64,000 bases of DNA. Origin: Diprion similis (taxonomy: Eukaryota; Arthropoda; Insecta; Hymenoptera; Diprionidae). The position numbers and the translations under genes were made by a program. Below, one piece after another: positions 3,409 through 33,545 of this stretch; positions within the stretch are counted from its first letter, which is position 1, and each line of letters opens with the position of its first letter. The DNA is taken from NCBI RefSeq assembly GCF_021155765.1, contig NC_060110.1, positions 7,315,501 to 7,379,500 of the forward strand. The letters are read 5' to 3'. The notes under the pieces are model-generated. The model saw nothing but the letters and a program-made list of their open reading frames with translations, ran no database searches and had not been told where the DNA came from.

Positions 3409-4800
3409 CTACGTCAGATTTTGAATGGGATTAGCTGCTGCTTCGTTATCACGCTGCTTGCGTAACTCTTGATCCGTCAATCGCGGCGTATTCAAAGTGC
3501 GCGCAAATAATTCCTCTCGAAAAATTACGTCGACATGGTGAATCGCAAACTTGATTTCAGCATTCTTCAAAATTGTCAAAATTTTCACCAAAAATCCAAG
3601 GGTAGTTAGCCTTACTCGTTCGCAATTTCATGAGCAAATGAATGGTCATCGCGGAATCGATTTGAACAACCCTTTATGGGCTGATTGGGCCCTCAGGGGT
3701 GCGGAGAAGAGATCAAGAATAGGAAACGACCAACTGTTGCGGATAAAATTAAATTTTTATTTATTTTATTCCAGGTTACAGGAAATGGTAACAGTACAAT
3801 ATCCTACATCATAATTCGCATTGTGCAGAAGTGTGTTGCGCCGTCACCCAGGCCGAAACTTGAGTATTTTTTATATTATGCTTAAGACGATGTAAAGTGC
3901 GTATTTCCTCATGTAGTAATTAGATTTCTAAAGTAATGTTGGATTTATGTAATGGATTACTGCTGTATAATATGTTGCAGTCTTCTTGGGCTTCCATTTT
4001 TTCTCTATTTGTCAACTTTTTGAATCCCTACAAACTGACAACCTGACATTTGTACTAGTATAGAGGCATATTAAATAAACTGATACTTTAAGCTAGAAAT
4101 TCCTGATTTTTTTTACCCTCGTTCCTGAAAACCATTTCCGAATTTCTTGAGTATCAACTGTACGTGTGACCCGTCGTTCAGTTAGTGAAACTAGCTTTTT
4201 TGCAATTTTGGAGCGAAAATATCTTCCTCCTGGAACGGTTGAGAAAAATTATTGTAGAACTACTTGAATCTTCAGAAATGCAGAATAGAGATCTAGGGGA
4301 GTCGAATACCGGAAGCTGCGTGAATGTTAGGACATTTCCTAGAATTTTGTCAGTAACTCTAGATCCGTTGCTAGCGAAGTGTCAGTCTGCAGTGAGAGAA
4401 ATTTTCAACCAAAAATCACGTGGGCGTAATGCATGAAAAAATGGATTTCATAGTGGTTTCGAAATGAGGACTTACGTTATCTTTGGAACATATTCCGTTG
4501 TCGTCAAAATTTTAACCGAAAATCCAGAGGGTTGAGCATGACTTTCCGTGAGGAAAAAATCTTTTGTCGCGAGATTTTTTCGGCTGTGACTCTTCTGGCG
4601 TTGCACGCAGCGTATTAGGACTGCGCTTGATCGTTTTCTCTCGGAAAATTACGTCAGATGAGCGCCTCAACGAATCAATTGCAGCACTATTCAAGAACGG
4701 TAAGATTTTGACCAAAAATCCCAATTGGTTAGCCTTACTTTTTTCGCGATTGTCGAAGCCGGGAACTTTTCGACTCAAAATCGATTTGTATGACCATCTC
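3409..4800. repeat. Decayed left edge of the 312-bp satellite
   Basis: Segments here are diverged relatives of the satellite monomer. One covers about 3440-3640 (conserved words include AAATTACGTCG and CAAAAATCCAAGG near GTTAGCCTTAC). Another weak one lies near 4390-4420. A clearer copy runs from about 4500 to 4800 (TTTTTTCGGCTGTGACT, GCAGCGTATTAGGACTGCGC, AAAATTACGTCAG). Between them, about 3700-4380, the sequence is no longer recognisable. Spacing is not kept at 312 bp. This is what is expected at the margin of an array, where sequence exchange no longer homogenises copies. Confidence 0.75.
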
Positions 4801-7800
4801 TAGAGCAATTCGACCCCCAGGAACTCAAAAAACACATGCAAAATAGCGTAGGACCAACAGCAGAGAAATGACGACGAAAATCTGCAGTTTTTCGGCTGTA
4901 ACTTTCCAGGCGCTGCTCGCAGGGTATTGGGACTGCGCTCAATCGATTTCTCACGCAAAATTACGTCGGAATAGTGCCTTAAGGAATTAATTGCAGCCTT
5001 TTTCGAAATCGTCGAAATTTTCGTCAAAAATCCAAAGGGGTTAGCCTTAGTTTTTTCTCGATTTTTGGGAGTGAAAATTTCGCGTCTTCGAATCGGTTGG
5101 TATGACCCTTTCTAGAGTAATTCGACCACCAGGAACTCGAAAAACACATGCAAAATAGCGTAGGACCAACAGCAGAGGAATGACGACGAAAATCTGCAGT
5201 TTTTCGGCTGTAACTTTCCAGGCGCTGCTCGCAGGGTATTGGGACTGCGCTCAATCGATTTCTCTCGCGAAATTACGTCGGAATAGTGCCTTAAGAAGGT
5301 AAATGCAGCCTTTTTCGAAATCGTCGAAATTTTCGTCAAAAATCCAAAGGGGTTAGCCTTAGTTTTTTCTCGATTTTTGGGGCTGAAAATTTCGCGTCTT
5401 CGAATCGGTTGGTATGACCCTTCCTAGAGTAATTCGACCACCAGGAACTCGAAAAACACATGCAAAATAGCGTAGGACCAACAGCAGAGAAATGACGACG
5501 AAAATCTGCAGTTTTTCGGCTGTAACTTTCCAGGCGCTGCTCGCAGGGTATTGGGACTGCGCTCAATCGATTTCTCTCGCAAAATTACGTCGGAATAGTG
5601 CCTTGAGAAATTAATTGCAGCCTTTTTCGAAATCGTCGAAATTTTCGTCAAAAATCCAAAGGGGTTAGCCTTAGTTTTTTCTCGATTTTTGGGGGTGAAA
5701 ATTTCGCGTCTTCGAATCGGTTGGTATGACCCTTGCTAGAGTAATTCGACCACCAGGAACTCAAAAAACACATGCAAAATAGCGTAGGACCAACAGCAGA
5801 GAAATGACGACGAAAATCTGCAGTTTTTCGGCTGTAACTTTCCAGGCGCTGCTCACAGGGTATTGGGACTGCGCTCAATCGATTTCTCTCGCAAAATTAC
5901 GTCGGAATAGTGCCTCAAGAAATGAATTGCAGCCTTTTTCGAAATCGTCGAAATTTTCGTCAAAAATCCAAAGGGGTTAGCCTTAGTTTTTTCTCGATTT
6001 TTGGGGCTGAAAATTTCGCGTCTTCGAATCGGTTGGTATGACCCTTCCTAGAGTAATTCGACCACCAGAAACTCGAAAAACACATGCAAAATAGCGTAGG
6101 ACCAACAGCAGAGAAATGACGACGAAAATCTGCAGTTTTTCGGCTGTAACTTTCCAGGCGCTGCTCGCAGGGTATTGGGACTGCGCTCAATCGATTTCTC
6201 TCGCAAAATTACGTCGGAATAGTGCCTTCAGAAATGAATTGCAGCCTTTTTCGAAATCGTCGAAATTTTCGTCAAAAATCCGAAGGGGTTAGCCTTAGTT
6301 TTTTCTCGATTTTTGGGGCTGAAAATTTCGCGTCTTCGAATCGGTTGGTATGACCCTTCCTAGAGTAATTCGACCACCAGGAACTCGAAAAACACATGCA
6401 AAATAGCGTAGGACCAACAGCAGAGAAATGACGACGAAAATCTGCAGTTTTTCGGCTGTAACTTTCCAGGCGCTGCTCGCAGGGTATTGGGACTGCGCTC
6501 AATCGATTTCTCTCGCAAAATTACGTCGGAATAGTGCCTTAAGAAATGAATTGCAGCCTTTTTCGAAATCGTCGAAATTTCCGTCAAAAATCCAAAGGGG
6601 TTAGCCTCAGTTTTTTCTCGATTTTTGGGGCTGAAAATTTCGCGTCTTCGAATCGGTTGGTATGACCCTTCCTAGAGTAATTCGACCACCAGGAACTCGA
6701 AAAACACATGCAAAATAGCGTAGGACCAACAGCAGAGAAATGACGACGAAAATCTGCAGTTTTTCGGCTGTAACTTTCCAGGCGCTGCTCGCAGGGTATT
6801 GGGACTGCGCTCAATCGATTTCTCTCGCAAAATTACGTCGGAATAGTGCCTCAAGAAATGAATTGCAGCCTTTTTCGAAATCGTCGAAATTTTCGTCAAA
6901 AATCCAAAGGGGTTAGCCTTAGTTTTTTCTCGATTTTTGGGGCTGAAAATTTCGCGTCTTCGAATCGGTTGGTATGACCCTTCCTAGAGTAATTCGACCA
7001 CCAGGAACTCGAAAAACACATGCAAAATAGCGTAGGACCAACAGCAGAGAAATGACGACGAAAATCTGCAGTTTTTCGGCTGTAACTTTCCAGGCGCTGC
7101 TCGCAGGGTATTGGGACTGCGCTCAATCGATTTCTCTCGCAAAATTACGTCGGAATAGTGCCTTAAGGAATGAATTGCAGCCTTTTTCGAAATCGTCGAA
7201 ATTTCCGTCAAAAATCCAAAGGGGTTAGCCTCAGTTTTTTCTCGATTTTTGGGGCTGAAAATTTCGCGTCTTCGAATCGGTTGGTATGACCCTTCCTAGA
7301 GTAATTCGACCACCAGGAACTCGAAAAACACATGCAAAATAGCGTAGGACCAACAGCAGAGAAATGACGACGAAAATCTGCAGTTTTTCGGCTGTAACTT
7401 TCCAGGCGCTGCTCGCAGGGTATTGGGACTGCGCTCAATCGATTTCTCTCGCAAAATTACGTCGGAATAAAGCCTTAAGAAATTAATTGCAGCCTTTTTC
7501 GAAATCGTCGAAATTTTCGTCAAAAATCCAAAGGGGTTAGCCTTAGTTTTTTCTTGATTTTTGGGGGTGAAAATTTCGCGTCTTCAAATCGGTTGGTATG
7601 ACCCTTCCTAGAGTAATTCGACCACCAGGAACTCAAAAAACACATGCAAAATAGCGTAGGACCAACAGCAGAGAAATGACGACGAAAATCTGCAGTTTTT
7701 CGGCTGTAACTTTCCAGGCGCTGCTCGCAGGGTATTGGGACTGCGCTCAATCGATTTCTCTCGCAAAATTACGTCGGAATGGTGCCTTAAGAAATTATTT

Positions 7801-10800
7801 GCAGCCTTTTTCTTAATCGTCGAAATTTTCGTCAAAAATCCAAAGGGGTTAGCCTTAGTTTTTTCTCGATTTTTGGGGGTGAAAATTTCGCGTCTTCGAA
7901 TCGGTTGGTATGACCCTTCCTAGAGTAATTCGACCACCAGGAACTCGAAAAACACATGCAAAATAGCGTAGGACCAACAGCAGAGAAATGACGACGAAAA
8001 TCTGCAGTTTTTCGGCTGTAACTTTCCAGGCGCTGCTCGCAGGGTATTGGGACTGCGCTCAATCGATTTCTCTCGCAAAATTACGTCGGAATAGTGCCTT
8101 AAGAAATTAATTGCAGCCTTTTTCGAAATCGTCGAAATTTTCGTCAAAAATCCAAAGGGGTTAGCCTTAGTTTTTTCTCGATTTTTGAGGGTGAAAATTT
8201 CGCGTCTTCGAATCGGTTGGTATGACCCTTCCTAGAGTAATTCGACCACCAGGAACTCAAAAAACACATGCAAAATAGCGTAGGACCAACAGCAGAGAAA
8301 TGACGACGAAAATCTGCAGTTTTTCGGCTGTAACTTTCCAGGCGCTGCTCGCAGGGTATTGGGACTGCGCTCAATCGATTTCTCTCGCAAAATTACGTCG
8401 GAATAGTGCCTTGAGAAATTATTTGCAGCCTTTTTCGAAATCGTCGAAATTTTCGTCAAAAATCCAAAGGGGTTAGCCTTAGTTTTTTCTCGATTTTTGG
8501 GGGTGAAAATTTCGCGTCTTCGAATCGGTTGGTATGACCCTTCCTAGAGTAATTCGACCACCAGGAACTCGAAAAACACATGCAAAATAGCGTAGGACCA
8601 ACAGCAGAGAAATGACGACGAAAATCTGCAGTTTTTCGGCTGTAACTTTCCAGGCGCTGCTCGCAGGGTATTGGGACTGCGCTCAATCGATTTCTCTCGC
8701 AAAATTACGTCGGAATAGTGCCTTGAGAAATTAATTGCAGCCTTTTTCGAAATCGTCGAAATTTTCGTCAAAAATCCAAAGGGGTTAGCCTTAGTTTTTT
8801 CTCGATTTTTGGGGGTGAAAATTTCGCGTCTTCGAATCGGTTGGTATGACCCTTCCTAGAGTAATTCGACCACTAGGATCTCAAAAAACACATGCAAAAT
8901 AGCGTAGGACCAACAGCAGAGAAATGACGACGAAAATCTGCAGTTTTTCGGCTGTAACTTTCCAGGCGCTGCTCGCAGGGTATTGGGACGGCGCTCAATC
9001 GATTTCTCTGGCAAAATTACGTCGGAATAGTGCCTTAAGAAATTAATTGCAGCCTTTTTCGAAATCGTCGAAATTTTCGTCAAAAATCCAAAGGGGTTAG
9101 CCTTAGTTTTTTCTCGATTTTTGGGGCTGAAAATTTCGCGTCTTCGAATCGGTTGGTATGACCCTTCCTAGAGTAATTCGACCACCAGGAACTCGAAAAA
9201 CACATGCAAAATAGCGTAGGACCAACAGCAGAGAAATGACGACGAAAATCTGCAGTTTTTCGGCTGTAACTTTCCAGGCGCTGCTCGCAGGGTATTGGGA
9301 CTGCGCTCAATCGATTTCTCTCGCAAAATTACGTCGAAATAGTGCCTTAAGAAATTAATTGCAGCCTTTTTCGAAATCGTCGAAATTTTCGTCAAAAATC
9401 CAAAGGGGTTAGCCTTAGTTTTTTCTCGATTTTTGGGGGTGAAAATTTCGCGTCTTCGAATCGGTTGGTATGACCCTTCCTAGAGTAATTCGACCACCAG
9501 GAACTCAAAAAACACATGCAAAATAGCGTAGGACCAACAGCAGAGAAATGACGACGAAAATCTGCAGTTTTTCGGCTGTAACTTTCCAGGCGCTGCTCGC
9601 AGGGTATTGGGACGGCGCTCAATCGATTTCTCTCGCAAAATTACGTCGGAATAGTGCCTTAAGAAATTAATTGCAGCCTTTTTCGAAATCGTCGAAATTT
9701 TCGTCAAAAATCCAAAGGGGTTAGCCTTAGTTTTTTCTCGATTTTTGGGGCTGAAAATTTCGCGTCTTCGAATCGGTTGGTATGACCCTTCCTAGAGTAA
9801 TTCGACCACCAGGAACTCGAAAAACACATGCAAAATAGCGTAGGACCAACAGCAGAGAAATGACGACGAAAATCTGCAGTTTTTCGGCTGTAACTTTCCA
9901 GGCGCTGCTCGCAGGGTATTGGGACTGCGCTCAATCGATTTCTCTCGCAAAATTACGTCGGAATAGTGCCTTAAGAAATTAATTGCAGCCTTTTTCGAAA
10001 TCGTCGAAATTTTCGTCAAAAATCCAAAGGGGTTAGCCTTAGTTTTTTCTCGATTTTTGGAGCTGAAAATTTCGCGTCTTCGAATCGGTTGGTATGACCC
10101 TTCCTAGAGTAATTCGACCACCGGGAACTCAAAAAACACATGCAAAATAGCGTAGGACCAACAGCAGAGAAATGACGACGAAAATCTGCAGTTTTTCGGC
10201 TGTAACTTTCCAGGCGCTGCTCGCAGGGTATTGGGACTGCGCTCAATCGATTTCTCTCGCAAAATTACGTCGGAATAGTGCCTTAAGAAATGAATTGCAG
10301 CCTTTTTCGAAATCGTCGAAATTTTCGTCAAAAATCCAAAGGGGTTAGCCTTAGTTTTTTCTCGATTTTTGGGGCTGAAAATTTCGCGTCTTCGAATCGG
10401 TTGGTATGACCCTTCCTAGAGTAATTCGACCACCAGGAACTCGAAAAACACATGCAAAATAGCGTAGGACCAACAGCAGAGAAATGACGACGAAAATCTG
10501 CAGTTTTTCGGCTGTAACTTTCCAGGCGCTGCTCGCAGGGTATTGGGACTGCGCTCAATCGATTTCTCTCGCAAAATTACGTCGGAATAGTGCCTTAAGA
10601 AATGAATTATAGCCTTTTTCGAAATCGTCGAAATTTTCGTCAAAAATCCAAAGGGGTTAGCCTTAGTTTTTTCTCGATTTTTGGGGCTGAAAATTTCGCG
10701 TCTTCGAATCGGTTGGTATGACCCTTCCTAGAGTAATTCGACCACCAGGAACTCGAAAAACACATGCAAAATAGCGTAGGACCAACAGCAGAGAAATGAC

Positions 10801-13800
10801 GACGAAAATCTGCAGTTTTTCGGCTGTAACTTTCCAGGCGCTGCTCGCAGGGTATTGGGACTGCGCTCAATCGATTTCTCTCGCAAAATTACGTCGGAAT
10901 AGTGCCTTCAGAAATTAATTGCAGCCTTTCTCGAAATCGTCGAAATTTTCGTCAAAAATCCAAAGGGGTCAGCCTTAGTTTTTTCTCGATTTTTGGGGGT
11001 GAAAATTTCGCGTCTTCGAATCGGTTGGTATGACCCTTCCTAGAGTAATTCGACCACCAGGAACTCGAAAAACACATGCAAAATAGCGTAGGACCAACAG
11101 CAGAGAAATGACGACGAAAATCTGCAGTTTTTCGGCTGTAACTTTCCAGGCGCTGCTCGCAGGGTATTGGGACTGCGCTCAATCGATTTCTCTCGCAAAA
11201 TTATGTCGGAATAGTGCCTTAAGAAATGAATTGCAGCCTTTTTCGAAATCGTCGAAATTTTCGTCAAAAATCCAAAGGGGTTAGCCTTAGTTTTTTCTCG
11301 ATTTTTGAAGCTGAAAATTTCGCGTCTTCGAATCGGTTGGTATGACCCTTCCTAGAGTAATTCGACCACCAGGAACTCGAAAAACACATGCAAAATAGCG
11401 TAGGACCAACAGCAGAGAAATGACGACGAAAATCTGCAGTTTTTCGGCTGTAACTTTCCAGGCGCTGCTCGCAGGGTATTGGGACTGCGCTCAATCGATT
11501 TCTCTCGCAAAATTACGTCGGAATAGTGCCTTAAGAAATGAATTGCAGCCTTTTTCGAAATCGTCGAAATTTCCGTCAAAAATCCAAAGGGGTTAGCCTC
11601 AGTTTTTTCTCGATTTTTGGGGCTGAAAATTTCGCGTCTTCGAATCGGTTGGTATGACCCTTCCTAGAGTAATTCGACCACCAGGAACTCGAAAAACACA
11701 TGCAAAATAGCGTAGGACCAACAGCAGAGAAATGACGACGAAAATCTGCAGTTTTTCGGCTGTAACTTTCCAGGCGCTGCTCGCAGGGTATTGGGACTGC
11801 GCTCAATCGATTTCTCTCGCAAAATTACGTCGGAATTGTGCCTTAAGAAATGAATTGCAGCCTTTTTCGAAATCGTCGAAATTTTCGTCAAAAATCCAAA
11901 GGGGTTAGCCTTGGTTTTTTCTCGATTTTTGGGGCTGAAAATTTCGCGTCTTCGAATCGGTTGGTATGACCCTTCCTAGAGTAATTCGACCACCAGGAAC
12001 TCGAAAAACACATGCAAAATAGCGTGAGACCAACAGCAGAGAAACGACGACGAAAATCTGCAGTTTTTCGGCTGTAACTTTCCAGGCGCTGCTCGCAGGG
12101 TATTGGGACTGCGCTCAATCGATTTCTCTCGCAAAATTACGTCGGAATAGTGCCTTAAGAAATTATTTGCAGCCTTTTTCGAAATCGTCGAAATTTTCGT
12201 CAAAAATCCAAAGGGGTTAGCCTTAGTTTTTTCTCGATTTTTGAGGGTGAAAATTTCGCGTCTTCGAATCGGTTGGTATGACCCTTCCTAGAGTAATTCG
12301 ACCACCAGGAACTCAAAAAACACATGCAAAATAGCGTAGGACCAACAGCAGAGAAATGACGACGAAAATCCGCAGTTTTTCGGCTGTCACTTTCCAGGCG
12401 CTGCTCGCAGGGTATTGGGACTGCGCTCAATCGATTTCTCTCGCAAAATTACGTCGGAATAGTGCATTAAGAAATTAATTGCAGCCTTTTTCGAAATCGT
12501 CGAAATTTTCGTCAAAAATCCAAAGGGGTTAGCCTTAGTTTTTTCTCGATTTTTGGGGCTGAAAATTTCGCGTCTTCGAATCGGTTGGTATGACCCTTCC
12601 TAGAGTAATTCGACCACCAGGAACTCGAAAAACACATGCAAAATAGCGTAGGACCAACAGCAGAGAAATGACGACGAAAATCTGCAGTTTTTCGGCTGTA
12701 ACTTTCCAGGCGCTGCTCGCAGGGTATTGGGACTGCGCTCAATCGATTTCTCTCGCAAAATTACGTCGGAATGGTGCCTTAAGAAATTATTTGCAGCCTT
12801 TTTCTTAATCGTCGAAATTTTCGTCAAAAATCCAAAGGGGTTAGCCTTAGTTTTTTCTCGATTTTTGGGGCTGAAAATTTCGCGTCTTCGAATCGGTTGG
12901 TATGACCCTTCCTAGAGTAATTCGACCACCAGGAACTCGAAAAACACATGCAAAATAGCGTAGGACCAACAGCAGAGAAATGACGACGAAAATCTGCAGT
13001 TTTTCGGCTGTAACTTTCCAGGCGCTGCTCGCAGGGTATTGGGACTGCGCTCAATCGATTTCTCTCGCAAAATTACGTCGGAATAGTGCCTTAAGAAATG
13101 AATTGCAGCCTCTTTCGAAATCGTCGAAATTTTCGTCAAAAATCCAAAGGGGTTAGCCTTAGTTTTTTCTCGATTTTTGGGGCTGAAAATTTCGCGTCTT
13201 CGAATCGGTTGGTATGACCCTTCCTAGAGTAATTCGACCACCAGGAACTCGAAAAACACATGCAAAATAGCGTAGGACCAACAGCAGAGAAATGACGACG
13301 AAAATCTGCAGTTTTTCGGCTGTAACTTTCCAGGCGCTGCTCGCAGGGTATTGGGACTGCGCTCAATCGATATCTCTCGCAAAATTACGTCGGAATAGTG
13401 CCTTAAGAAATTAATTGCAGCCTTTTTCGAAATCGTCGAAATTTTCGTCAAAAATCCAAAGGGGTTAGCCTTAGTTTTTTCTCGATTTTTGAGGCTGAAA
13501 ATTTCGCGTCTTCGAATCGGTTGGTATGACCCTTCCTAGAGTAATTCGACCACCGGGAACTCAAAAAAAACATGCAAAATAGCGTAGGACCAACAGCAGA
13601 GAAATGACGACGAAAATCTGCAGTTTTTCGGCTGTAACTTTCCAGGCGCTGCTCGCAGGGTATTGGGACTGCGCTCAATCGATTTCTCTCGCAAAATTAC
13701 GTCGGAATAGTGCCTTAAGAAATGAATTGCAGCCTTTTTCGAAATCGTCGAAATTTTCGTCAAAAATCCAAAGGGGTTAGCCTTAGTTTTTTCTCGATTT

Positions 13801-14695
13801 TTGGGGCTGAAAATTTCGCGTCTTCGAATCGGTTGGTATGACTCTCCCTAGAGTAATCCGACCACCAGGAACTCGAAAAACACATGCAAAATAGCGTAGG
13901 ACCAACAGCAGAGAAATGACGACGAAAATCTGCAGTTTTTCGGCTGTCACTTTCCAGGCGCTGCTCGCAGGGTATTGGGACTGCGCTCAATCGATTTCTC
14001 TCGCAAAATTACGTCGGAATAGTGCCTTAAGAAATTAATTGCAGCCTTTTTCGAAATCGTCGAAATTTTCAACAAAAATCCAAAGGGGTTAGCCTTAGTT
14101 TTTTCTCGATTTTTGGGGGTGAAAATTTCGCGTCTACGAATCGGTTGGTATGACCCTTCCTAGAGTAATTCGACCACCGGGAACTCAAAAAACACATGCA
14201 AAATAGCGTAGGACCAACAGCAGAGAAATGACGACGAAAATCTGCAGTTTTTCGGCTGTAACTTTCCAGGCGCTGCTCGCAGGGTATTGGGACTGCGCTC
14301 AATCGATTTCTCTCGCAAAATTACGTCGGAATAGTGCCTTAAGAAATGAATTGCAGCCTTTTTCGAAATCGTCGAAATTTTCGTCAAAAATCCAAAGGGG
14401 TTAGCCTTAGTTTTTTCTCGATTTTTGGGGCTGAAAATTTCGCGTCTTCGAATCGGTTGGTATGACCCTTTCTAGAGTAATTCGACCACCAGGAACTCGA
14501 AAAACACATGCAAAATAGCGTAGGACCAACAGCAGAGAAATGACGACGAAAATCTGCAGTTTTTCGGCTGTAACTTTCCAGGCGCTGCTCGCAGGGTATT
14601 GGGACTGCGCTCAATCGATTTCTCTCGCAAAATTACGTCGGAATAGTGCCTTAAGAAATTAATTGCAGCCTTTTTCGAAATCGTCGAAATTTTCG

Positions 14696-17600
14696 TCAAA
14701 AATCCAAAGGGGTTAGCCTTAGTTTTTTCTCGATTTTTGGGGCTGAAAATTTCGCGTCTTCGAATCGGTTGGTATGACCCTTCCTAGAGTAATTCGACCA
14801 CCGGGAACTCAAAAAACACATGCAAAATAGCGTAGGACCAACAGCAGAGAAATGACGACGAAAATCTGCAGTTTTTCGGCTGTAACTTTCCAGGCGCTGC
14901 TCGCAGGGTATTGGGACTGCGCTCAATCGATTTCTCTCGCAAAATTACGTCGGAATAGTGCCTTAAGAAATGAATTGCAGCCTTTTTCGAAATCGTCGAA
15001 ATTTTCGTCAAAAATCCAGAGGGGTTAGCCTTAGTTTTTTCTCGATTTTTGGGGCTGAAAATTTCGCGTCTTCGAATCGGTTGGTATGACCCTTCCTAGA
15101 GTAATTCGACCACCAGGAACTCGAAAAACACATGCAAAATAGCGTAGGACCAACAGCAGAGAAATGACGACGAAAATCTGCAGTTTTTCGGCTGTCACTT
15201 TCCAGGCGCTGCTCGCAGGGTATTGGGACTGCGCTCAATCGATTTCTCTCGCAAAATTACGTCGGAATAGTGCCTTAAGAAATTAATTGCAGCCTTTTTC
15301 GAAATCGTCGAAATTTTCGTCAAAAATCCAAAGGGGTTAGCCTTAGTTTTTTCTCGATTTTTGGGGGTGAAAATTTCGCGTCTACGAATCGGTTGGTATG
15401 ACCCTTCCTAGAGTAATTCGACCACCGGGAACTCAAAAAACACATGCAAAATAGCGTAGGACCAACAGCAGAGAAATGACGACGAAAATCTGCAGTTTTT
15501 CGGCTGTAACTTTCCAGGCGCTGCTCGCAGGGTATTGGGACTGCGCTCAATCGATTTCTCTCGCAAAATTACGTCGGAATAGTGCCTCAAGAAATTAATT
15601 GCAGCCTTTTTCGAAATCGTCGAAATTTTCGTCAAAAATCCAAAGGGGTTAGCCTTAGTTTTTTCTCGATTTTTGGGGGTGAAAATTTCGCGTCTTCGAA
15701 TCGGTCGGTATGACCCTTCCTAGAGTAATTCGACCACCAGGAACTCAAAAAACACATGCAAAAGAGCGTAGGACCAACAGCAGAGAAATGACGACGAAAA
15801 TCTGCAGTTTTTCGGCTGTAACTTTCCAGGCGCTGCTCGCAGGGTATTGGGACTGCGCTCAATCGATTTCTCTCGCAAAATTACGTCGGAATAGTGCCTT
15901 AAGAAATTAATTGCAGCCTTTTTCGAAATCGTCGAAATTTTTGTCAAAAATCCAAAGGGGTTAGCCTTAGTTTTTTCTCGATTTTTGGGGGTGAAAATTT
16001 CGCGTCTTCGAATCGGCTGGTATGACCCTTCCTAGAGTAATTCGACCACCAGGAACTCAAAAAACACATGCAAAATAGCGTAGGACCAACAGCAGAGAAA
16101 TGACGACGAAAATCTGCAGTTTTTCGGCTGTAACTTTCCAGGCGCTGCTCGCAAGGTATTGGGACTGCGCTCAATCGATTTCTCTCGCAAAATTACGTCG
16201 GAATAGTGCCTTAAGAAATGAATTGCAGCCTTTTTCGAAATCGTCGAAATTTTCGTCAAAAATCCAAAGGGGTTAGCCTTAGTTTTTTCTCGATTTTTGG
16301 GGCTGAAAATTTCGCGTCTTCGAATCGGTTGGTATGACCCTTCCTAGAGTAATTCGACCACCAGGAACTTGAAAAACACATGCAAAATAGCGTAGGACCA
16401 ACAGCAGAGAAATGACGACGAAAATCTGCAGTTTTTCGGCTGTAACTTTCCAGGCGCTGCTCGCAGGGTATTGGGACTGCGCTCAATCGATTTCTCTCGC
16501 AAAATTACGTCGAAATAGTGCCTTAAGAAATGAATTGCAGCCTTTTTCGAAATCGTCGAAATTTTCGTCAAAAATCCAAAGGGGTTAGCCTTAGTTTTTT
16601 CTCGATTTTTGGGGCTGAAAATTTCGCGTCTTCGAATCGGTTGGTATGACCCTTCCTAGAGTAATTCGACCACCAGGAACTCGAAAAACACATGCAAAAT
16701 AGCGTAGGACCAACAGCAGAGAAATGACGACGAAAATCTGCAGTTTTTCGGCTGTAACTTTCCAGGCGCTGCTCGCAGGGTATTGGGACTGCGCTCAATC
16801 GATTTCTCTCGCAAAATTACGTCGGAATAGTGCCTTAAGAAATTAATTGCAGCCTTTTTCGAAATCGTCGAAATTTTTGTCAAAAATCCAAAGGGGTTAG
16901 CCTTAGTTTTTTCTCGATTTTTGGGGGTGAAAATTTCGCGTCTTCGAATCGGCTGGTATGACCCTTCCTAGAGTAATTCGACCACCAGGAACTCAAAAAA
17001 CACATGCAAAATAGCGTAGGACCAACAGCAGAGAAATGACGACGAAAATCTGCAGTTTTTCGGCTGTAACTTTCCAGGCGCTGCTCGCAGGGTATTGGGA
17101 CTGCGCTCAATCGATTTCTCTCGCAAAATTACGTCGGAATAGTGCCTTAAGAAATGAATTGCAGCCTTTTTCGAAATCATCGAAATTTTCGTCAAAAATC
17201 CAAAGGGGTTAGCCTTAGTTTTTTCTCGATTTTTGGGGCTGAAAATTTCGCGTCTTCGAATCGGTTGGTATGACCCTTCCTAGAGTAATTCGACCACCAG
17301 GAACTCGAAAAACACATGCAAAATAGCGTAGGACCAACAGCAGAGAAATGACGACGAAAATCTGCAGTTTTTCGGCTGTAATTTTCCAGGCGCTGCTCGC
17401 AGGGTATTGGGACTGCGCTCAATCGATTTCTCTCGCAAAATTACGTCGGAATAGTGCCTTAAGAAATTAATTGCAGCCTTTTTCGAAATCGTCGAAATTT
17501 TCGTCAAAAATCCAAAGGGGTTAGCCTTAGTTTTTTCTCGATTTTTGGGGCTGAAAATTTCGCGTCTTCGAATCGGTTGGTATGACCCTTCCTAGAGTAA

Positions 17601-20311: not shown

Positions 20312-22895
20312 TCAAAAATCCAAAGGGGTTAGCCTTAGTTTTTTCTCGATTTTTGGGGCTGAAAATTTCGCGTCTTCGAATCGGTTGGTATGACCCTTCC
20401 TAGAGTAATTCGACCACCAGGAACTCGAAAAACACATGCAAAATAGCGTAGGACCAACAGCAGAGAAATGACGACGAAAATCTGCAGTTTTTCGGCTGTA
20501 ACTTTCCAGGCGCTGCTCGCAGGGTATTGGGACTGCGCTCAATCGATTTCTCTCGCAAAATTACGTCGGAATAGTGCCTTAAGAAATGAATTGCAGCCTT
20601 TTTCGAAATCGTCGAAATTTTCGTCAAAAATCCAAAGGGGTTAGCCTTAGTTTTTCCTCGATTTTTGGGGCTGAAAATTTCGCGTCTTCGAATCGGTTGT
20701 TATGACCCTTCCTAGAGTAATTCGACCACCAGGAACTCGAAAAACACATGCAAAATAGCGTAGGACCAACAGCAGAGAAATGACGACGAAAATCTGCAGT
20801 TTTTCGGCTGTAACTTTCCAGGCGCTGCTCGCAGGGTATTGGGACTGCGCTCAATCGATTTCTCTCGCAAAATTACGTCGGAATAGTGCCTTAAGAAATG
20901 AATTATAGCCTTTTTCGAAATCGTCAAAATTTTCGTCAAAAATCCAAAGGGGTTAGCCTTAGTTTTTTCTCGATTTTTGGGGCTGAAAATTTCGCGTCTT
21001 CGAATCGGTTGGTATGACCCTTCCTAGAGTAATTCGACCACCAGGAACTCGAAAAACACATGCAAAATAGCGTAGGACCAACAGCAGAGAAATGACGACG
21101 AAAATCTGCAGTTTTTCGGCTGTAACTTTCCAGGCGCTGCTCGCAGGGTATTGGGACTGCGCTCAATCGATTTCTCTCGCAAAATTACGTCGGAATAGTG
21201 CCTTAAGAAATGAATTGCAGCCTTTTTCGAAATCGTCGAAATTTTCGTCAAAAATCCAAAGGGGTTAGCCTTAGTTTTTTCTCGATTTTTGGGGCTGAAA
21301 ATTTCGCGTCTTCGAATCGGTTGGTATGACCCTTCCTAGAGTAATTCGACCACCAGGAACTCGAAAAACACATGCAAAATAGCGTAGGACCAACAGCAGA
21401 GAAATGACGACGAAAATCTGCAGTTTTTCGGCTGTAACTTTCCAGGCGCTGCTCGCAGGGTATTGGGACTGCGCTCAATCGATTTCTCTCGCAAAATTAC
21501 GTCGGAATAGTGCCTCAAGAAATGAATTGCAGCCTTTTTCGAAATCGTCGAAATTTTTGTCAAAAATCCAAAGGGGTTAGCCTTAGTTTTTTCTCGATTT
21601 TTGGGGCTGAAAATTTCGCGTCTTTGAATCGGTTGGTATGACCCTTCCTAGAGTAATTCGACCACCAGGAACTCGAAAAACACATGCAAAATAGCGTAGG
21701 ACCAACAGCAGAGAAATGACGACGAAAATCTGCAGTTTTTCGGCTGTAACTTTCCAGGCGCTGCTCGCAGGGTATTGGGACTGCGCTCAATCGATTTCTC
21801 TCGCAAAATTACGTCGGAATAGTGCCTCAAGAAATGAATTGCAGCCTTTTTCGAAATCGTCGAAATTTTCGTCAAAAATCCAAAGGGGTTAGCCTTAGTT
21901 TTTTCTCGATTTTTGGGGCTGAAAATTTCGCGTCTTCGAATCGGTTGGTATGACCCTTCCTAGAGTAATTCGACCACCAGGAACTCGAAAAACACATGCA
22001 AAATAGCGTAGGACCAACAGCAGAGAAATGACGACGAAAATCTGCAGTTTTTCGGCTGTAACTTTCCAGGCGCTGCTCGCAGGGTATTGGGACTGCGCTC
22101 AATCGATTTCTCTCGCAAAATTACGTCGGAATAGTGCCTTAAGAAATGAATTGCAGCCTTTTTCGAAATCGTCGAAATTTCCGTCAAAAATCCAAAGGGG
22201 TTAGCCTCAGTTTTTTCTCGATTTTTGGGGCTGAAAATTTCGCGTCTTCCAATCGGTTGGTATGACCCTTCCTAGAGTAATTCGACCACCAGGAACTCGA
22301 AAAACACATGCAAAATAGCGTAGGACCAACAGCAGAGAAATGACGACGAAAATCTGCAGTTTTTCGGCTGTAACTTTCCAGGCGCTGCTCGCAGGGTATT
22401 GGGACTGCGCTCAATCGATTTCTCTCGCAAAATTACGTCGGAATAGTGCCTTAAGAAATTAATTGCAGCCTTTTTCGAAATCGTCGAAATTTTCGTCAAA
22501 AATCCAAAGGGGTTAGCCTTAGTTTTTTCTCGATTTTTGAGGGTGAAAATTTCGCGTCTTCGAATCGGTTGGTATGACCCTTCCTAGAGTAATTCGACCA
22601 CCAGGAACTCGAAAAACACATGCAAAATAGCGTAGGACCAACAGCAGAGAAATGACGACGAAAATCTGCAGTTTTTCGGCTGTAACTTTCCAGGCGCTGC
22701 TCGCAGGGTATTGGGACTGCGCTCAATCGATTTCTCTCGCAAAATTACGTCGAAATAGTGCCTTAAGAAATTAATTGCAGCCTTTTTCGAAATCGTCGAA
22801 ATTTTCGTCAAAAATCCAAAGGGGTTAGCCTTAGTTTTTTCTCGATTTTTGGGGGTGAAAATTTCGCGTCTTCGAATCGGTTGGTATGACCCTTC

Positions 22896-24767
22896 CTAGA
22901 GTAATTCGACCACCAGGAACTCAAAAAACACATGCAAAATAGCGTAGGACCAACAGCAGAGAAATGACGACGAAAATCTGCAGTTTTTCGGCTGTAACTT
23001 TCCAGGCGCTGCTCGCAGGGTATTGGGACTGCGCTCAATCGATTTCTCTCGCAAAATTACGTCGGAATGGTGCCTTAAGAAATTATTTGCAGCCTTTTTC
23101 TTAATCGTCGAAATTTTCGTCAAAAATCCAAAGGGGTTAGCCTTAGTTTTTTCTCGATTTTTGGGGGTGAAAATTTCGCGTCTTCGAATCGGTTGGTATG
23201 ACCCTTCCTAGAGTAATTCGACCACCAGGAACTCGAAAAACACATGCAAAATAGCGTAGGACCAACAGCAGAGAAATGACGACGAAAATCTGCAGTTTTT
23301 CGGCTGTAACTTTCCAGGCGCTGCTCGCAGGGTATTGGGACTGCGCTCAATCGATTTCTCTCGCAAAATTACGTCGGAATAGTGCCTTAAGAAATGAATT
23401 GCAGCCTCTTCCGAAATCGTCGAAATTTTCGTCAAAAATCCAAAGGGGTTAGCCTTAGTTTTTTCTCGATTTTTGGGGCTGAAAAATTCGCGTCTTCGAA
23501 TCGGTTGGTATGACCCTTCCTAGAGTAATTCGACCACCAGGAACTCGAAAAACACATGCAAAATAGCGTAGGACCAACAGCAGAGAAATGACGACGAAAA
23601 TCTGCAGTTTTTCGGCTGTAACTTTCCAGGCGCTGCTCGCAGGGTATTGGGACTGCGCTCAATCGATTTCTCTCGCAAAATTACGTCGGAATAGTGCCTC
23701 AAGAAATTAATTGCAGCCTTTTTCGAAATCGTCGAAATTTTCGTCAAAAATCCAAAGGGGTTAGCCTTAGTTTTTTCTCGATTTTTGGGGGTGAAAATTT
23801 CGCGTCTTCGAATCGGTTGGTATGACCCTTCCTAGAGTAATTCGACCACCAGGAACTCAAAAAACACATGCAAAATAGCGTAGGACCAACAGCAGAGAAA
23901 TGACGACGAAAATCTGCAGTTTTTCGGCTGTAACTTTCCAGGCGCTGCTCGCAGGGTATTGGGACTGCGCTCAATCGATTTCTCTCGCAAAATTACGTCG
24001 GAATGGTGCCTTAAGAAATTATTTGCAGCCTTTTTCTTAATCGTCGAAATTTTCGTCAAAAATCCAAAGGGGTTAGCCTTAGTTTTTTCTCGATTTTTGG
24101 GGGTGAAAATTTCGCGTCTTCGAATCGGTTGGTATGACCCTTCCTAGAGTAATTCGACCACCAGGAACTCGAAAAACACATGCAAAATAGCGTAGGACCA
24201 ACAGCAGAGAAATGACGACGAAAATCTGCAGTTTTTCGGCTGTAACTTTCCAGGCGCTGCTCGCAGGGTATTGGGACTGCGCTCAATCGATTTCTCTCGC
24301 AAAATTACGTCGGAATAGTGCCTCAAGAAATGAATTGCAGCCTCTTCCGAAATCGTCGAAATTTTCGTCAAAAATCCAAAGGGGTTAGCCTTAGTTTTTT
24401 CTCGATTTTTGGGGCTGAAAAATTCGCGTCTTCGAATCGGTTGGTATGACCCTTCCTAGAGTAATTCGACCACCAGGAACTCGAAAAACACATGCAAAAT
24501 AGCGTAGGACCAACAGCAGAGAAATGACGACGAAAATCTGCAGTTTTTCGGCTGTAACTTTCCAGGCGCTGCTCGCAGGGTATTGGGACTGCGCTCAATC
24601 GATTTCTCTCGCAAAATTACGTCGGAATAGTGCCTTAAGAAATTAATTGCAGCCTTTTTCGAAATCGTCGAAATTTTCGTCAAAAATCCAAAGGGGTTAG
24701 CCTTAGTTTTTCCTCGATTTTTGGGGCTGAAAATTTCGCGTCTTCGAATCGGTTGGTATGACCCTTC
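22896..24767. repeat. Three-monomer tandem duplication within the satellite
   Basis: Blocks 22896-23831 and 23832-24767 share a set of rare variants at an offset of 936 bp (three monomers). These are GGAATGGTGCC with TTCTTAATCG, then CCTCTTCCGAAATCG (about 23405 and 24341), then GAAAAATTCGCG (about 23481 and 24417). The two differ at only a few positions, so the duplication is recent. The same GGAATGGTGCC/TTCTTAATCG monomer type also occurs near 7780 and 12772, so the variant is older than this duplication. Confidence 0.85.
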
Positions 24768-27700
24768 CTAGAGTAATTCGACCACCGGGAACTCAAAAAA
24801 CACATGCAAAATAGCGTAGGACCAACAGCAGAGAAATGACGACGAAAATCTGCAGTTTTTCGGCTGTAACTTTCCAGGCGCTGCTCGCAGGGTATTGGGA
24901 CTGCGCTCAATCGATTTCTCTCGCAAAATTACGTCGGAATAGTGCCTTAAGAAATGAATTGCAGCCTTTTTCGAAATCGTCGAAATTTTCGTCAAAAATC
25001 CAAAGGGGTTAGCCTTAGTTTTTTCTCGATTTTTGGGGCTGAAAATTTCGCGTCTTCGAATCGGTTGGTATGACTCTTCCTAGAGTAATTCGACCACCAG
25101 GAACTCGAAAAACACATGCAAAATAGCGTAGGACCAACAGCAGAGAAATGACGACGAAAATCTGCAGTTTTTCGGCTGTCACTTTCCAGGCGCTGCTCGC
25201 AGGGTATTGGGACTGCGCTCAATCGATTTCTCTCGCAAAATTACGTCGGAATAGTGCCTTAAGAAATTAATTGCAGCCTTTTTCGAAATCGTCGAAATTT
25301 TCAACAAAAATCCAAAGGGGTTAGCCTTAGTTTTTTCTCGATTTTTGGGGGTGAAAATTTCGCGTCTACGAATCGGTTGGTATGACCCTTCCTAGAGTAA
25401 TTCGACCACCGGGAACTCAAAAAACACATGCAAAATAGCGTAGGACCAACAGCAGAGAAATGACGACGAAAATCTGCAGTTTTTCGGCTGTAACTTTCCA
25501 GGCGCTGCTCGCAGGGTATTGGGACTGCGCTCAATCGATTTCTCTCGCAAAATTACGTCGGAATAGTGCCTCAAGAAATTAATTGCAGCCTTTTTCGAAA
25601 TCGTCGAAATTTTCGTCAAAAATCCAAAGGGGTTAGCCTTAGTTTTTTCTCGATTTTTGGGGGTGAAAATTTCGCGTCTTCGAATCGGTCGGTATGACCC
25701 TTCCTAGAGTAATTCGACCACCAGGAACTCAAAAAACACATGCAAAAGAGCGTAGGACCAACAGCAGAGAAATGACGACGAAAATCTGCAGTTTTTTGGC
25801 TGTAACTTTCCAGGCGCTGCTCGCAGGGTATTGGGACTGCGCTCAATCGATTTCTCTCGCAAAATTACGTCGGAATAGTGCCTTAAGAAATTAATTGCAG
25901 CCTTTTTCGAAATCGTCGAAATTTTCGTCAAAAATCCAAAGGGGTTAGCCTTAGTTTTTTCTCGATTTTTGGGGCTGAAAATTTCGCGTCTTCGAATCGG
26001 TTGGTATGACCCTTCCTAGAGTAATTCGACCACCAGGAACTCGAAAAACACATGCAAAATAGCGTAGGACCAACAGCAGAGAAATGACGACGAAAATCTG
26101 CAGTTTTTCGGCTGTAACTTTCCAGGCGCTGCTCGCAGGGTATTGGGACTGCGCTCAATCGATTTCTCTCGCAAAATTACGTCGGAATAGTGCCTTAAGA
26201 AATTAATTGCAGCCTTTTTCGAAATCGTCGAAATTTTCGTCAAAAATCCAAAGGGGTTAGCCTTAGTTTTTTCTCGATTTTTGGGGGTGAAAATTTTGCG
26301 TCTTCGAATCGGTTGGTATGACCCTTCCTAGAGTAATTCGACCACCGGGAACTCAAAAAACACATGCAAAATAGCGTAGGACCAACAGCAGAGAAATGAC
26401 GACGAAAATCTGCAGTTTTTCGGCTGTAACTTTCCAGGCGCTGCTCGCAGGGTATTGGGACTGCGCTCAATCGATTTCTCTCGCAAAATTACGTCGGAAT
26501 AGTGCCTTAAGAAATTAATTGCAGCCTTTTTCGAAATCGTCGAAATTTTCGTCAAAAATCCAAAGGGGTTAGCCTTAGTTTTTCCTCGATTTTTGGGGCT
26601 GAAAATTTCGCGTCTTCGAATCGGTTGGTATGACCCTTCCTAGAGTAATTCGACCACCGGGAACTCAAAAAACACATGCAAAATAGCGTAGGACCAACAG
26701 CAGAGAAATGACGACGAAAATCTGCAGTTTTTCGGCTGTAACTTTCCAGGCGCTGCTCGCAGGGTATTGGGACTGCGCTCAATCGATTTCTCTCGCAAAA
26801 TTACGTCGGAATAGTGCCTTAAGAAATGAATTGCAGCCTTTTTCGAAATCGTCGAAATTTTCGTCAAAAATCCAAAGGGGTTAGCCTTAGTTTTTTCTCG
26901 ATTTTTGGGGCTGAAAATTTCGCGTCTTCGAATCGGTTGGTATGACTCTTCCTAGAGTAATTCGACCACCAGGAACTCGAAAAACACATGCAAAATAGCG
27001 TAGGACCAACAGCAGAGAAATGACGACGAAAATCTGCAGTTTTTCGGCTGTCACTTTCCAGGCGCTGCTCGCAGGGTATTGGGACTGCGCTCAATCGATT
27101 TCTCTCGCAAAATTACGTCGGAATAGTGCCTTAAGAAATTAATTGCAGCCTTTTTCGAAATCGTCGAAATTTTCAACAAAAATCCAAAGGGGTTAGCCTT
27201 AGTTTTTTCTCGATTTTTGGGGGTGAAAATTTCGCGTCTACGAATCGGTTGGTATGACCCTTCCTAGAGTAATTCGACCACCGGGAACTCAAAAAACACA
27301 TGCAAAATAGCGTAGGACCAACAGCAGAGAAATGACGACGAAAATCTGCAGTTTTTCGGCTGTAACTTTCCAGGCGCTGCTCGCAGGGTATTGGGACTGC
27401 GCTCAATCGATTTCTCTCGCAAAATTACGTCGGAATAGTGCCTCAAGAAATTAATTGCAGCCTTTTTCGAAATCGTCGAAATTTTCGTCAAAAATCCAAA
27501 GGGGTTAGCCTTAGTTTTTTCTCGATTTTTGGGGGTGAAAATTTCGCGTCTTCGAATCGGTCGGTATGACCCTTCCTAGAGTAATTCGACCACCAGGAAC
27601 TCGAAAAACACATGCAAAATAGCGTAGGACCAACAGCAGAGAAATGACGACGAAAATCTGCAGTTTTTCGGCTGTAACTTTCCAGGCGCTGCTCGCAGGG

Positions 27701-28111
27701 TATTGGGACTGCGCTCAATCGATTTCTCTCGCAAAATTACGTCGGAATAGTGCCTTAAGAAATTAATTGCAGCCTTTTTCGAAATCGTCGAAATTTTCGT
27801 CAAAAATCCAAAGGGGTTAGCCTTAGTTTTTTCTCGATTTTTGGGGGTGAAAATTTTGCGTCTTCGAATCGGTTGGTATGACCCTTCCTAGAGTAATTCG
27901 ACCACCGGGAACTCAAAAAACACATGCAAAATAGCGTAGGACCAACAGCAGAGAAATGACGACGAAAATCTGCAGTTTTTCGGCTGTAACTTTCCAGGCG
28001 CTGCTCGCAGGGTATTGGGACTGCGCTCAATCGATTTCTCTCGCAAAATTACGTCGGAATAGTGCCTTAAGAAATTAATTGCAGCCTTTTCCGAAATCGT
28101 CGAAATTTTCG
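24680..28111. repeat. Six-monomer duplication with a one-monomer loss, within the satellite
   Basis: Variants in 24680-25740 recur in 26552-27612 at an offset of 1872 bp (six monomers): TTTTTCCTCGATTT, TGACTCTTCC, TTCAACAAAAATCC and TCTACGAATCGG. Further along, the marker AAAATTTTGCG (about 26290 and 27850) recurs at only 1560 bp (five monomers). The second block has therefore lost exactly one monomer, which is the signature of unequal exchange in register. Confidence 0.8.
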
Positions 28112-30777
28112 TCAAAAATCCAAAGGGGTTAGCCTTAGTTTTTTCTCGATTTTTGGGGCTGAAAATTTCGCGTCTTCGAATCGGTTGGTATGACCCTTCC
28201 TAGAGTAATTCGACCACCAGGAACTCGAAAAACACATGCAAAATAGCGTAGGACCAACAGCAGAGAAATGACGACGAAAATCTGCAGTTTTTCGGCTGTA
28301 ACTTTCCAGGCGCTGCTCGCAGGGTATTGGGACTGCGCTCAATCGATTTCTCTCGCAAAATTACGTCGGAATAGTGCCTGAAGAAATTATTTGCAGCCTT
28401 TCTCGAAATCGTCGAAATTTTCGTCAAAAATCCAAAGGGGTTAGCCTTAGTTTTTTCTCGATTTTTGGGGCTGAAAATTTCGCGTCTTCGAATCGGTTGG
28501 TATGACCCTTCCTAGAGTAATTCGACCACCAGGAACTCGAAAAACACATGCAAAATAGCGTAGGACCAACAGCAGAGAAATGACGACGAAAATCTGCAGT
28601 TTTTCGGCTGTAACTTTCCAGGCGCTGCTCGCAGGGTATTGGGACTGCGCTCAATCGATTTCTCTCGCAAAATTACGTCGGAATAGTGCCTTAAGAAATG
28701 AATTGCAGCCTTTTTCGAAATCGTCGAAATTTTCGTCAAAAATCCAAAGGGGTTAGCCTTAGTTTTTTCTCGATTTTTGGGGCTGAAAATTTCGCGTCTT
28801 CGAATCGGTTGGTATGACCCTTCCTAGAGTAATTCGACCACCAGGAACTCGAAAAACACATGCAAAATAGCGTAGGACCAACAGCAGAGAAATGACGACG
28901 AAAATCTGCAGTTTTTCGGCTGTAACTTTCCAGGCGCTGCTCGCAGGGTATTGGGACTGCGCTCAATCGATTTCTCTCGCAAAATTACGTCGGAATAGTG
29001 CCTCAAGAAATGAATTGCAGCCTTTTTCGAAATCGTCGAAATTTTCGTCAAAAATCCAAAGGGGTTAGCCTTAGTTTTTTCTCGATTTTTGGGGCTGAAA
29101 ATTTCGCGTCTTCGAATCGGTTGGTATGACCCTTCCTAGAGTAATTCGACCACCAGGAACTCGAAAAACACATGCAAAATAGCGTAGGACCAACAGCAGA
29201 GAAATGACGACGAAAATCTGCAGTTTTTCGGCTGTAACTTTCCAGGCGCTGCTCGCAGGGTATTGGGACTGCGCTCAATCGATTTCTCTCGCAAAATTAC
29301 GTCGGAATAGTGCCTCAAGAAATGAATTGCAGCCTTTTTCGAAATCGTCGAAATTTTCGTCAAAAATCCAAAGGGGTTAGCCTTAGTTTTTTCTCGATTT
29401 TTGGGGCTGAAAATTTCGCGTCTTCGAATCGGTTGGTATGACCCTTCCTAGAGTAATTCGACCACCAGGAACTCGAAAAACACATGCAAAATAGCGTAGG
29501 ACCAACAGCAGAGAAATGACGACGAAAATCTGCAGTTTTTCGGCTGTAACTTTCCAGGCGCTGCTCGCAGGGTATTGGGACTGCGCTCAATCGATTTCTC
29601 TCGCAAAATTACGTCGGAATAGTGCCTTCAGAAATGAATTGCAGCCTTTTTCGAAATCGTCGAAATTTTCGTCAAAAATCCAAAGGGGTTAGCCTTAGTT
29701 TTTTCTCGATTTTTGGGGCTGAAAATTTCGCGTCTTCGAATCGGTTGGTATGACCCTCCCTAGAGTAATTCGACCACCAGGAACTCAAAAAACACATGCA
29801 AAATAGCGTAGGACCAACAGCAGAGAAATGACGACGAAAATCTGCAGTTTTTCGGCTGTAACTTTCCAGGCGCTGCTCGCAGGGTATTGGGACTGCGCTT
29901 AATCGATTTCTCTCGCAAAATTACGTCGGAATAGTGCCTGAAGAAATTAATTGCAGCCTTTTTCGAAATCGTCGAAATTTTCAACAAAAATCCAAAGGGG
30001 TTAGCCTTAGTTTTTTCTCGATTTCCGGAGCTGTAAATTTTCCGTCTCTGAATTGATTAGTATGACCCTTCTCAGGGTAATTCGACCACCAGGAATTCAG
30101 AAAACACGTGAAAAAGAGCGTAGGACCAACAGCAGAGAAATGACGATGAAATTCTGCAGTTTGTTGGCTGTAACTTTTCAGGCGCTGCTCGCAGCGTATT
30201 GGGACTGCGCTTTATCGATTTCACACGCAAAATTACGTCGGAATAGTGCCCTGAGGAATCATTTGCAGCCCGTTTCAAAATCGTCGAAATTTCCGACAAA
30301 AAACCAAAGGGGTTAGCCCTAGTTTTTTCTCGATTTTCGGAGGCGAAAATTTTGGGTCCCCGAATCGATTAGTGTGACCCTTTCCAGGGTTATCCGACCA
30401 CTAGGAACTCAGACAACACATGAAAAAGAGCGTCGGACCAACAGCAGAGAAATGACGATGAAATTCTTCAGTTTTTCGGCTGTAACTTTCCAGGCGCTGC
30501 CCGCAGCGTATTGGGACTGCGCTCAATCGATTTCTCTCGCAAAATGACTTCGGAATAGTGCCCGGAGGAATTATTTGCAGCCTGTTCCAAAATCGTCGAA
30601 ATTTTCGACAAAAATCCAAAGGGGTTAGCCTTAGTTTTCTGCTTATTTTCGGAGCTGAAAATTTCTTGTCTCGGAATCGATTTGTATGACCATCTCCATA
30701 GTAATTTGACCCCCAGGAACTCAGAAGACACATTAAAAAGAGCGTAAGACCAGCAGCAGAGAAATGACGACGAGAAT

Positions 30778-33382: not shown

Positions 33383-33545
33383 ATCACTCGCAGCGTATTG
33401 GGACTGCGTTCAATCAATTTCGCTCGCAAAATTCGTCGGAATAGCGCATGAAAGAATTGTTCGCAGCATTTTTCAATTCCCTTGAAATTTTCAGGAAAAA
33501 TCCAAAGGGGTTAGCCTTACTTTTTTTTGGGTCATAAGATTTTTA
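33383..33545. repeat. Detached satellite monomer fragment
   Basis: About half a monomer, in the same orientation as the array, with the words CAGCGTATTGGGACTGCG, TTTCGCTCGCAAAATTCG and AATCCAAAGGGGTTAGCC in the correct order. It lies about 1.8 kb beyond the decayed right edge. It may be a remnant of a once longer array or a separate insertion. Confidence 0.85.

What the first reader, a model, noticed from the sequence alone, without database searches (positions are those of the whole stretch)
4801..30777. Satellite with an exactly kept 312-bp period over 83 copies
Anchor words recur at exactly 312 bp from 4882 to 30778 without one net indel, while base substitutions are common. Strict length retention over 26 kb suggests very efficient homogenisation or a constraint on length, such as nucleosome phasing: 312 bp is near two nucleosome repeats of about 156 bp. 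The constraint idea is inference.
Basis: partly seen in the sequence, partly recalled or inferred. Interest (0 to 1): 0.75.

Follow-up and report, generated by a model that had tools for sequence, protein, structure and literature searches.

The report
Ordinary satellite array with exact 312-bp period
This is one well-homogenised array of an abundant, genome-wide tandem repeat; its exact 312-bp spacing is real, but sister arrays keep other lengths, so nothing shows that 312 bp itself is required.

Summary
Units recur at exactly 312 bp: 84 consecutive anchor spacings. The 80 core units hold 270 substitutions (80 distinct) and no indel. The array belongs to a satellite superfamily with 39,530 word matches, roughly 12 Mb of a 269-Mb genome with TTAGG repeats, probably an insect. 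Exact 312 bp is not a family rule: of 16,959 exact-word neighbour pairs spaced 297-327 bp, 10,661 are exactly 312. Other arrays keep 313, mix 309/311/312/313, hold 342, or alternate 342 and 312. The 342 class differs from the 312 class by one 30-bp block. Block duplications and decaying edges fit unequal exchange and conversion. Nucleosome phasing gains little support. One residue remains: the 312-class arrays counted have 1 indel per 256 substitutions, against 9 per 151 in a local non-array duplication (p 0.001); the 342 class (8 per 281) does not differ significantly from that control (p 0.2). The sample was chosen by similarity, and part of the contrast depends on gap penalties. Verdict: a new member of a known kind.

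The parts
4888..29847 (+). core satellite array, 80 units of exactly 312 bp, 60 distinct monomers, no indel
4576..4887 (+). left edge unit, 312 bp, 60 differences from the window consensus, still in register
29848..30783 (+). three right edge units, 312 bp each, 26, 46 and 45 differences from the window consensus, still in register
30784..31467 (+). decayed copies (cut by me into 30784-31122 and 31123-31467; anchor spacing 334) with several indels; they score best against 342-class consensuses and keep the 30-bp block
33387..33526 (+). outlying relic fragment of the same superfamily, best match to a 342-class consensus
3462..3697 (+). outlying relic fragment left of the array, best match to a 342-class consensus
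2734..4492 (+). left flank duplicated about 380 kb away beside another 312-class array (C6:7.70 Mb), 89% identical in its two longer pieces; used as local indel control (includes the relic 3462-3697)

Best explanation
This is one locally homogenised array of an abundant dispersed satellite superfamily. Units exchange in register by unequal crossing-over and gene conversion, so whichever length variant takes over an array is copied throughout it: 312 here, 342, 313 or mixtures elsewhere. Units at the edges drop out of exchange, diverge and finally lose the period. Shown: exact period, shared haplotypes in scattered blocks, decaying edges, several length classes. Inferred: the exchange mechanism, and that the 342 form is older here, the 312 form having lost (or the 342 form gained) a 30-bp block that resembles a duplication of the 30 bp before it.
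For: Mean distance between neighbours (5.67) equals the permuted mean (5.65, sd 0.16). Adjacent diagonal pairs of units sharing rare variants: 14, against 2.7 (sd 1.6, max 9) in 1000 permutations; examples are units 64-67 with 70-73 and 31-36 with 40-45. Eleven array consensuses align in 342 columns with one 30-bp and one 1-bp gap; the 312 and 342 classes lie on opposite sides of a midpoint-rooted tree, support 90/90, below the tool's mark for firm support. At C6:5.87 Mb 31 spacings are 342 and 14 are 312, with one each of 332, 337, 341 and 343. Arrays of 313 and mixed lengths exist. The right edge relics carry the 30-bp block, and an edge copy at C6:7.70 Mb has a 27-bp insertion at the same place. 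The block resembles the preceding 30 bp (shuffle P 0.001).
Against: Neutral homogenisation alone predicts the ordinary indel:substitution ratio, but the 312-class arrays counted have fewer indels: 1 distinct indel per 256 distinct substitutions (6 arrays, 161 units) against 9 per 151 in a local duplication (p 0.001). Four diverged edge units in register have 0 indels per 145 substitutions. The overall correlation along diagonals is not significant (0.088; permutations -0.011, sd 0.066, max 0.177), and the longest diagonal run (6) was also reached by permutation (max 6). Pairs sharing rare variants lie somewhat closer than random (median 18 against about 24 units).
Confidence: 0.75

Rival explanations
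1. Not exclusive of the first: exchange and repair inside arrays are biased against length heterologies, so indel-bearing units are corrected or rejected during conversion and arrays become length-locked while substitutions drift.
For: 312-class indel deficit against a local duplication (1 per 256 against 9 per 151, p 0.001; all 11 arrays 9 per 537, p 0.009). Eight decayed segments of the same superfamily outside array register: 46 indels per 428 substitutions; in-register edge units 0 per 145. Among singletons, 3 indels per 244 substitutions (summed, not tested).
Against: The 342 class (8 per 281) does not differ from the local duplication (p 0.195). With stricter gap penalties the decayed segments give 19 per 506-528 and the contrast for all arrays is p 0.05-0.08, though the 312 class stays at p 0.0063 (506 setting). 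Arrays outside the sample carry 309, 311 and 313 units. The sample was picked by similarity to the window.
Confidence: 0.25
2. Selection keeps the unit at a dinucleosome length (312 is near 2 x 156 bp).
For: 312 and 342 both fall near the 300-340 bp range favoured by beetle satellites (PMC10218199, passages read). Within-array variable sites are uneven (147-bp scan P 0.004; 156-bp harmonic P 0.011).
Against: 342, 313 and mixed arrays exist; A/T dinucleotide peak at 11.6 bp, not 10-10.7; the uneven pattern is not repeated between arrays (scan P 0.36, 156-bp harmonic P 0.36); no internal half-repeat at lag 156 (self-match 0.245). Selection on one unit among thousands would be minute (inference).
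Confidence: 0.08
3. Assembly artefact: the array was collapsed, expanded or polished to its own consensus, removing indels.
For: No reads were available. Polishing could remove small indels in repeats more than in unique DNA (inference).
Against: 60 distinct monomers of 80 with block structure; other arrays in the same assembly retain indels of 1, 2, 7 and 11 bp and mixed lengths.
Confidence: 0.07

Closest known systems
1.688 (359-bp) satellite family of Drosophila (PMC7642928, passages read)
   Same: One family with several length classes (359, 353-356, 260, about 190 bp), on different chromosomes, in heterochromatin and euchromatin; the 190-bp class is defined by a shared block deletion.
   Different: Sequence relation was not tested; here the block is 30 bp, and two classes also alternate within single arrays.
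Low-copy satellites of Tribolium castaneum, e.g. TCsat37 (PMC10218199, passages read)
   Same: Preferred unit lengths 140-180 and 300-340 bp; TCsat37 has subfamilies of 211, 270 and 330 bp, each internally 2.6-4.8% diverged.
   Different: The family here is far more abundant (about 4.6% of the genome by word count).
PpSat1/PpSat2 of Phytophthora (PMC7290008, passages read)
   Different: There PpSat1 is said to evolve mainly by indels; indels are rare in the arrays counted here.

Membership tests
satellite DNA | long head-to-tail array of non-coding units | tested here: met
   no stop-to-stop ORF of 110 aa or more in the core 4888-29847; no Rfam match at gathering score in the window
satellite DNA | concerted evolution: units of one array more alike than units of different arrays | tested here: met
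   mean 5.65 differences between core units; 16-56 substitutions between the window consensus and the 10 other array consensuses
higher-order-repeat array | regular multi-unit period | tested here: not met
   window array: self-match alike at the multiples of 312 tested, irregular blocks only; sister arrays at C6:5.87 and C11:11.15 Mb do have periods of 996 and 654
centromeric satellite | CENP-B box (not universal; motif recalled from memory) | tested here: not met
   0 of the 7 window hits (1 mismatch allowed) lie in the array; 15.35 expected by chance in the window
centromeric satellite | CENP-A occupancy | not testable with these tools
   no ChIP data
nucleosome-phasing repeat | A/T dinucleotide period near 10 bp | tested here: not met
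   strongest period 11.5-11.6 bp in the six 312-class consensuses and 11.5-14.8 bp in the other five; the 10-10.7-bp band itself was not tested against shuffles
nucleosome-phasing repeat | phased nucleosomes in vivo | not testable with these tools
   no MNase data
1.688-like family | sequence homology to 1.688 | not tested
   no eukaryote sequence collection on hand

The most novel reading that the evidence does not exclude
Arrays in this genome are length-locked by an exchange or repair process that filters out indels but not substitutions, leaving mostly quantised unit lengths (312 and 342, apart by 30 bp or about three helical turns).
Probability: 0.2. Interest if true: 0.6.

Novelty: new member of a known kind. 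Interest (0 to 1): 0.3.

Why it matters
The array is ordinary, but the genome offers a clean system: thousands of units of one superfamily in strict, mixed and higher-order arrays, with decayed copies beside them. That would let one measure whether array homogenisation treats indels and substitutions alike. One paper seen here scored substitutions and indels in two satellites (PMC7290008, passages); I saw no count with a same-sequence control outside arrays, from the listings and the passages read, which is a narrow search.

Tried and rejected
Coding repeat (312 = 3 x 104): rejected, no stop-to-stop frame of 110 aa or more in the core. RNA or ribozyme satellite: no Rfam match at gathering score; folding of one unit not clearly better than shuffles (RNA z -0.82 and -0.11; DNA z -1.68, 5 of 100 shuffles as good). 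A central dyad is visible in the fold but the whole is not significant. CENP-B box: none in the array. Host transposon: the spacer left of the array has one other full-length relative, at C6:7.70 Mb, plus 14 weaker partial matches, so a segmental duplication and old satellite relics fit better. Regular higher-order repeat in the window: rejected. Conserved 130-bp half of the monomer, suspected: within-array unevenness is significant (147-bp scan P 0.004; harmonics at 312, 156 and 104 bp P 0.03, 0.011, 0.024), but between arrays only the 104-bp harmonic is (P 0.008; scan P 0.36). Site by site the two kinds of variability correlate weakly (Spearman 0.23, P 4e-5), in 13-bp bins not (0.07, P 0.74). 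One search compared consensuses before three of them had been turned to the right strand; one search replaces it. Pairwise alignments also show compensating small gaps (for example +3/-3 with C6:7.70 Mb and with C11:4.64 Mb) that the multiple alignment does not need. A higher-order period for C1:0.12 Mb was sought and none reached the threshold. Literature: four term sets gave no papers; passages of PMC13102968, PMC5615363, PMC12934683 and PMC12746033 gave nothing that I used; Diprionidae was a guess for the organism, and nothing in that listing was followed. The organism was not identified.

Full report
Observation. The array is real and exact. TRF reports 4576-30874, period 312, 84.3 copies, 0% indels. 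Self-match is 0.975 at lag 312 and 0.973-0.976 at the multiples tested up to 3744. An anchor word gives 84 consecutive 312-bp spacings. In the 80 core units (4888-29847) there are 270 substitutions at 75 positions, 80 distinct changes, 60 distinct monomers and gaps in 0 of 80 units. Four edge units with 26-60 differences from the window consensus are also exactly 312 bp. PstI sites: 81, with 79 spacings of 312 and one of 624.

Setting. The window is C6:7315501-7379500 of a 269-Mb genome in 60 contigs. TTAGG repeats open contig C1 (17,045 word matches genome-wide), which with the transporter genes suggests an insect (inference). Of nine ORFs scanned with Pfam, two, both right of the array, are sugar transporters; the other seven had no match. 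So the array has gene-bearing DNA on its right, and a partial duplicate of the transporter region on its left.

A large family. A conserved 26-base word with up to 2 mismatches occurs 39,530 times (0 in the reversed control). At 312 bp each that is about 12.3 Mb or 4.6% of the genome (rough). A word from the 30-bp block of the 342 class, also with up to 2 mismatches, occurs 1,740 times. Arrays were seen on at least nine contigs: C1, C2, C3, C6, C8, C10, C11, C12 and C13.

Length is a property of each array. Eleven array consensuses were compared: six of 312, four of 342 and one of 341 bp. Their multiple alignment has 342 columns with one 30-bp block gap and one 1-bp gap. A midpoint-rooted tree puts the 312 class and the 342 class on opposite sides (support 90/90, below the tool's mark for firm support); the FastTree length corresponds to about 214 substitutions. 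Arrays at C6:5.87 Mb and C11:11.15 Mb mix 342- and 312-bp units, with periods of 996 and 654. Elsewhere spacings are 313 (C12:8.24 Mb, 4 of 4), 312 and 313 (C12:13.65 Mb, 7 and 6), 312, 313 and 311 (C1:3.55 Mb, 15, 15 and 1 single-unit spacings) and 312 and 309 (C1:0.12 Mb, 15 and 4, with some multi-unit spacings off by one). Other arrays, at C1:0.33 and C1:0.64 Mb, keep the 312 register over 57 and 30 units (coordinates, sums). Genome-wide, 10,661 of 16,959 neighbour pairs of an exact 16-base word spaced 297-327 bp are exactly 312. Strict 312 arrays therefore exist elsewhere, but 312 is not obligatory.

Mechanism. Neighbours are no more alike than random pairs (5.67 against 5.65 differences), yet rare variants recur in the same order at different places: 14 adjacent diagonal pairs against 2.7 in permutations (max 9). 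Two cruder statistics are weaker: the diagonal correlation is not significant, and the longest diagonal run of 6 was matched by a permutation. Pairs sharing rare variants lie somewhat closer than random (median 18 against about 24 units). That is what block-wise unequal exchange or conversion would leave (inference). At the right edge the units diverge (29848-30783), then lose the period (30784-31467), and these relics carry the 30-bp block, so the 342 form probably preceded the 312 form here (inference). The block resembles the preceding 30 bp, which suggests a short tandem duplication, or its loss.

Is there more than homogenisation? I counted distinct events in core units (those within 12% of their consensus; one window unit was left out). 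312 class: 256 substitutions and 1 indel (6 arrays, 161 units: 81, 34, 31, 3, 3 and 9). 342 class: 281 and 8 (5 arrays, 179 units: 57, 102, 8, 10 and 2). A 191-bp satellite on C2: 31 and 0 (34 units). Several of these are parts of longer arrays. Controls: the flank duplicated at C6:7.70 Mb has 151 substitutions and 9 indels, stable over the gap settings tried (151-155 and 9). Another duplication, 1-1847 with 38047-40062, has 201 and 30, falling to 246 and 11 with strict gaps. Smaller controls, in substitutions and indels: 27 and 0 (probably coding), 14 and 0, 8 and 6, 37 and 0, 14 and 3. Eight decayed segments outside array register have 428 and 46, falling to 506-528 and 19 with strict gaps.

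The 312-class deficit holds in each comparison computed: p 0.001 against the flank, p 0.006 or lower against the second duplication, p 0.0063 against decayed copies with strict gaps. The window array alone (0 per 96) against the flank gives p 0.015-0.03. For all 11 arrays (9 per 537) it is p 0.009-0.011 against the flank, at weakest 0.049 against the second duplication, and 0.05-0.08 against decayed copies with strict gaps. The 342 class alone does not differ from the flank (p 0.195), and 312 against 342 gives p 0.04. The 11 arrays were found by similarity to the window, and letters from mixed-length arrays could not be fetched, so the deficit may be overstated.

Nucleosome idea. The strongest A/T dinucleotide period is 11.5-11.6 bp in the 312 class, not 10-10.7. 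There is no half-unit repeat. A unit length of 300-340 bp is favoured in Tribolium satellites and linked by the authors to two nucleosomes (PMC10218199, passages), whereas a survey of 282 species found no conserved length for candidate centromeric repeats (PMC4053949, passages). The question needs chromatin data.

Verdict. A correctly observed, ordinary satellite array, a new member of a known kind, with one modest open point: the scarcity of indels inside the 312-class arrays counted.

Noticed in passing
L046:9253-10000 and L047:1-6001 (C2:8.793 Mb onwards): A 191-bp satellite, 96% matches, beside the 341-bp array; its unit is about 69% like a spacer next to the C10:5.14 Mb array, so spacer sequence may have been amplified separately.
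   Followed up: partly
L022:462-1059 and L022:2279-2868 (C13:1.83 Mb): A short 312-bp array of 3.8 units lies between two direct repeats of about 600 bp, 94% alike.
   Followed up: no
L043-L044 (C6:5.87 Mb) and L052-L055 (C11:11.15 Mb): Higher-order arrays made of 342- and 312-bp units with periods 996 and 654.
   Followed up: partly
window 1-2064 against 38047-41742: The left flank is a diverged duplicate of the transporter-gene region; the part matching 40063-41522 is missing on the left, so that copy looks truncated.
   Followed up: partly
window 40122-58337, - strand: A tandem cluster of sugar-transporter-like genes (Pfam Sugar_tr on the two ORFs scanned there; others judged by eye from translations).
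   Followed up: partly
window 52830-53170: A 177-bp tandem duplication, 91% alike, without indels.
   Followed up: no
312-class consensuses: A/T dinucleotides peak at 11.5-11.6 bp in all six; in the range 9.5-11.5 bp the four tested exceed shuffles (P 0.000-0.015) and the two 342-class ones tested do not (P 0.27, 0.65). Meaning unknown.
   Followed up: no
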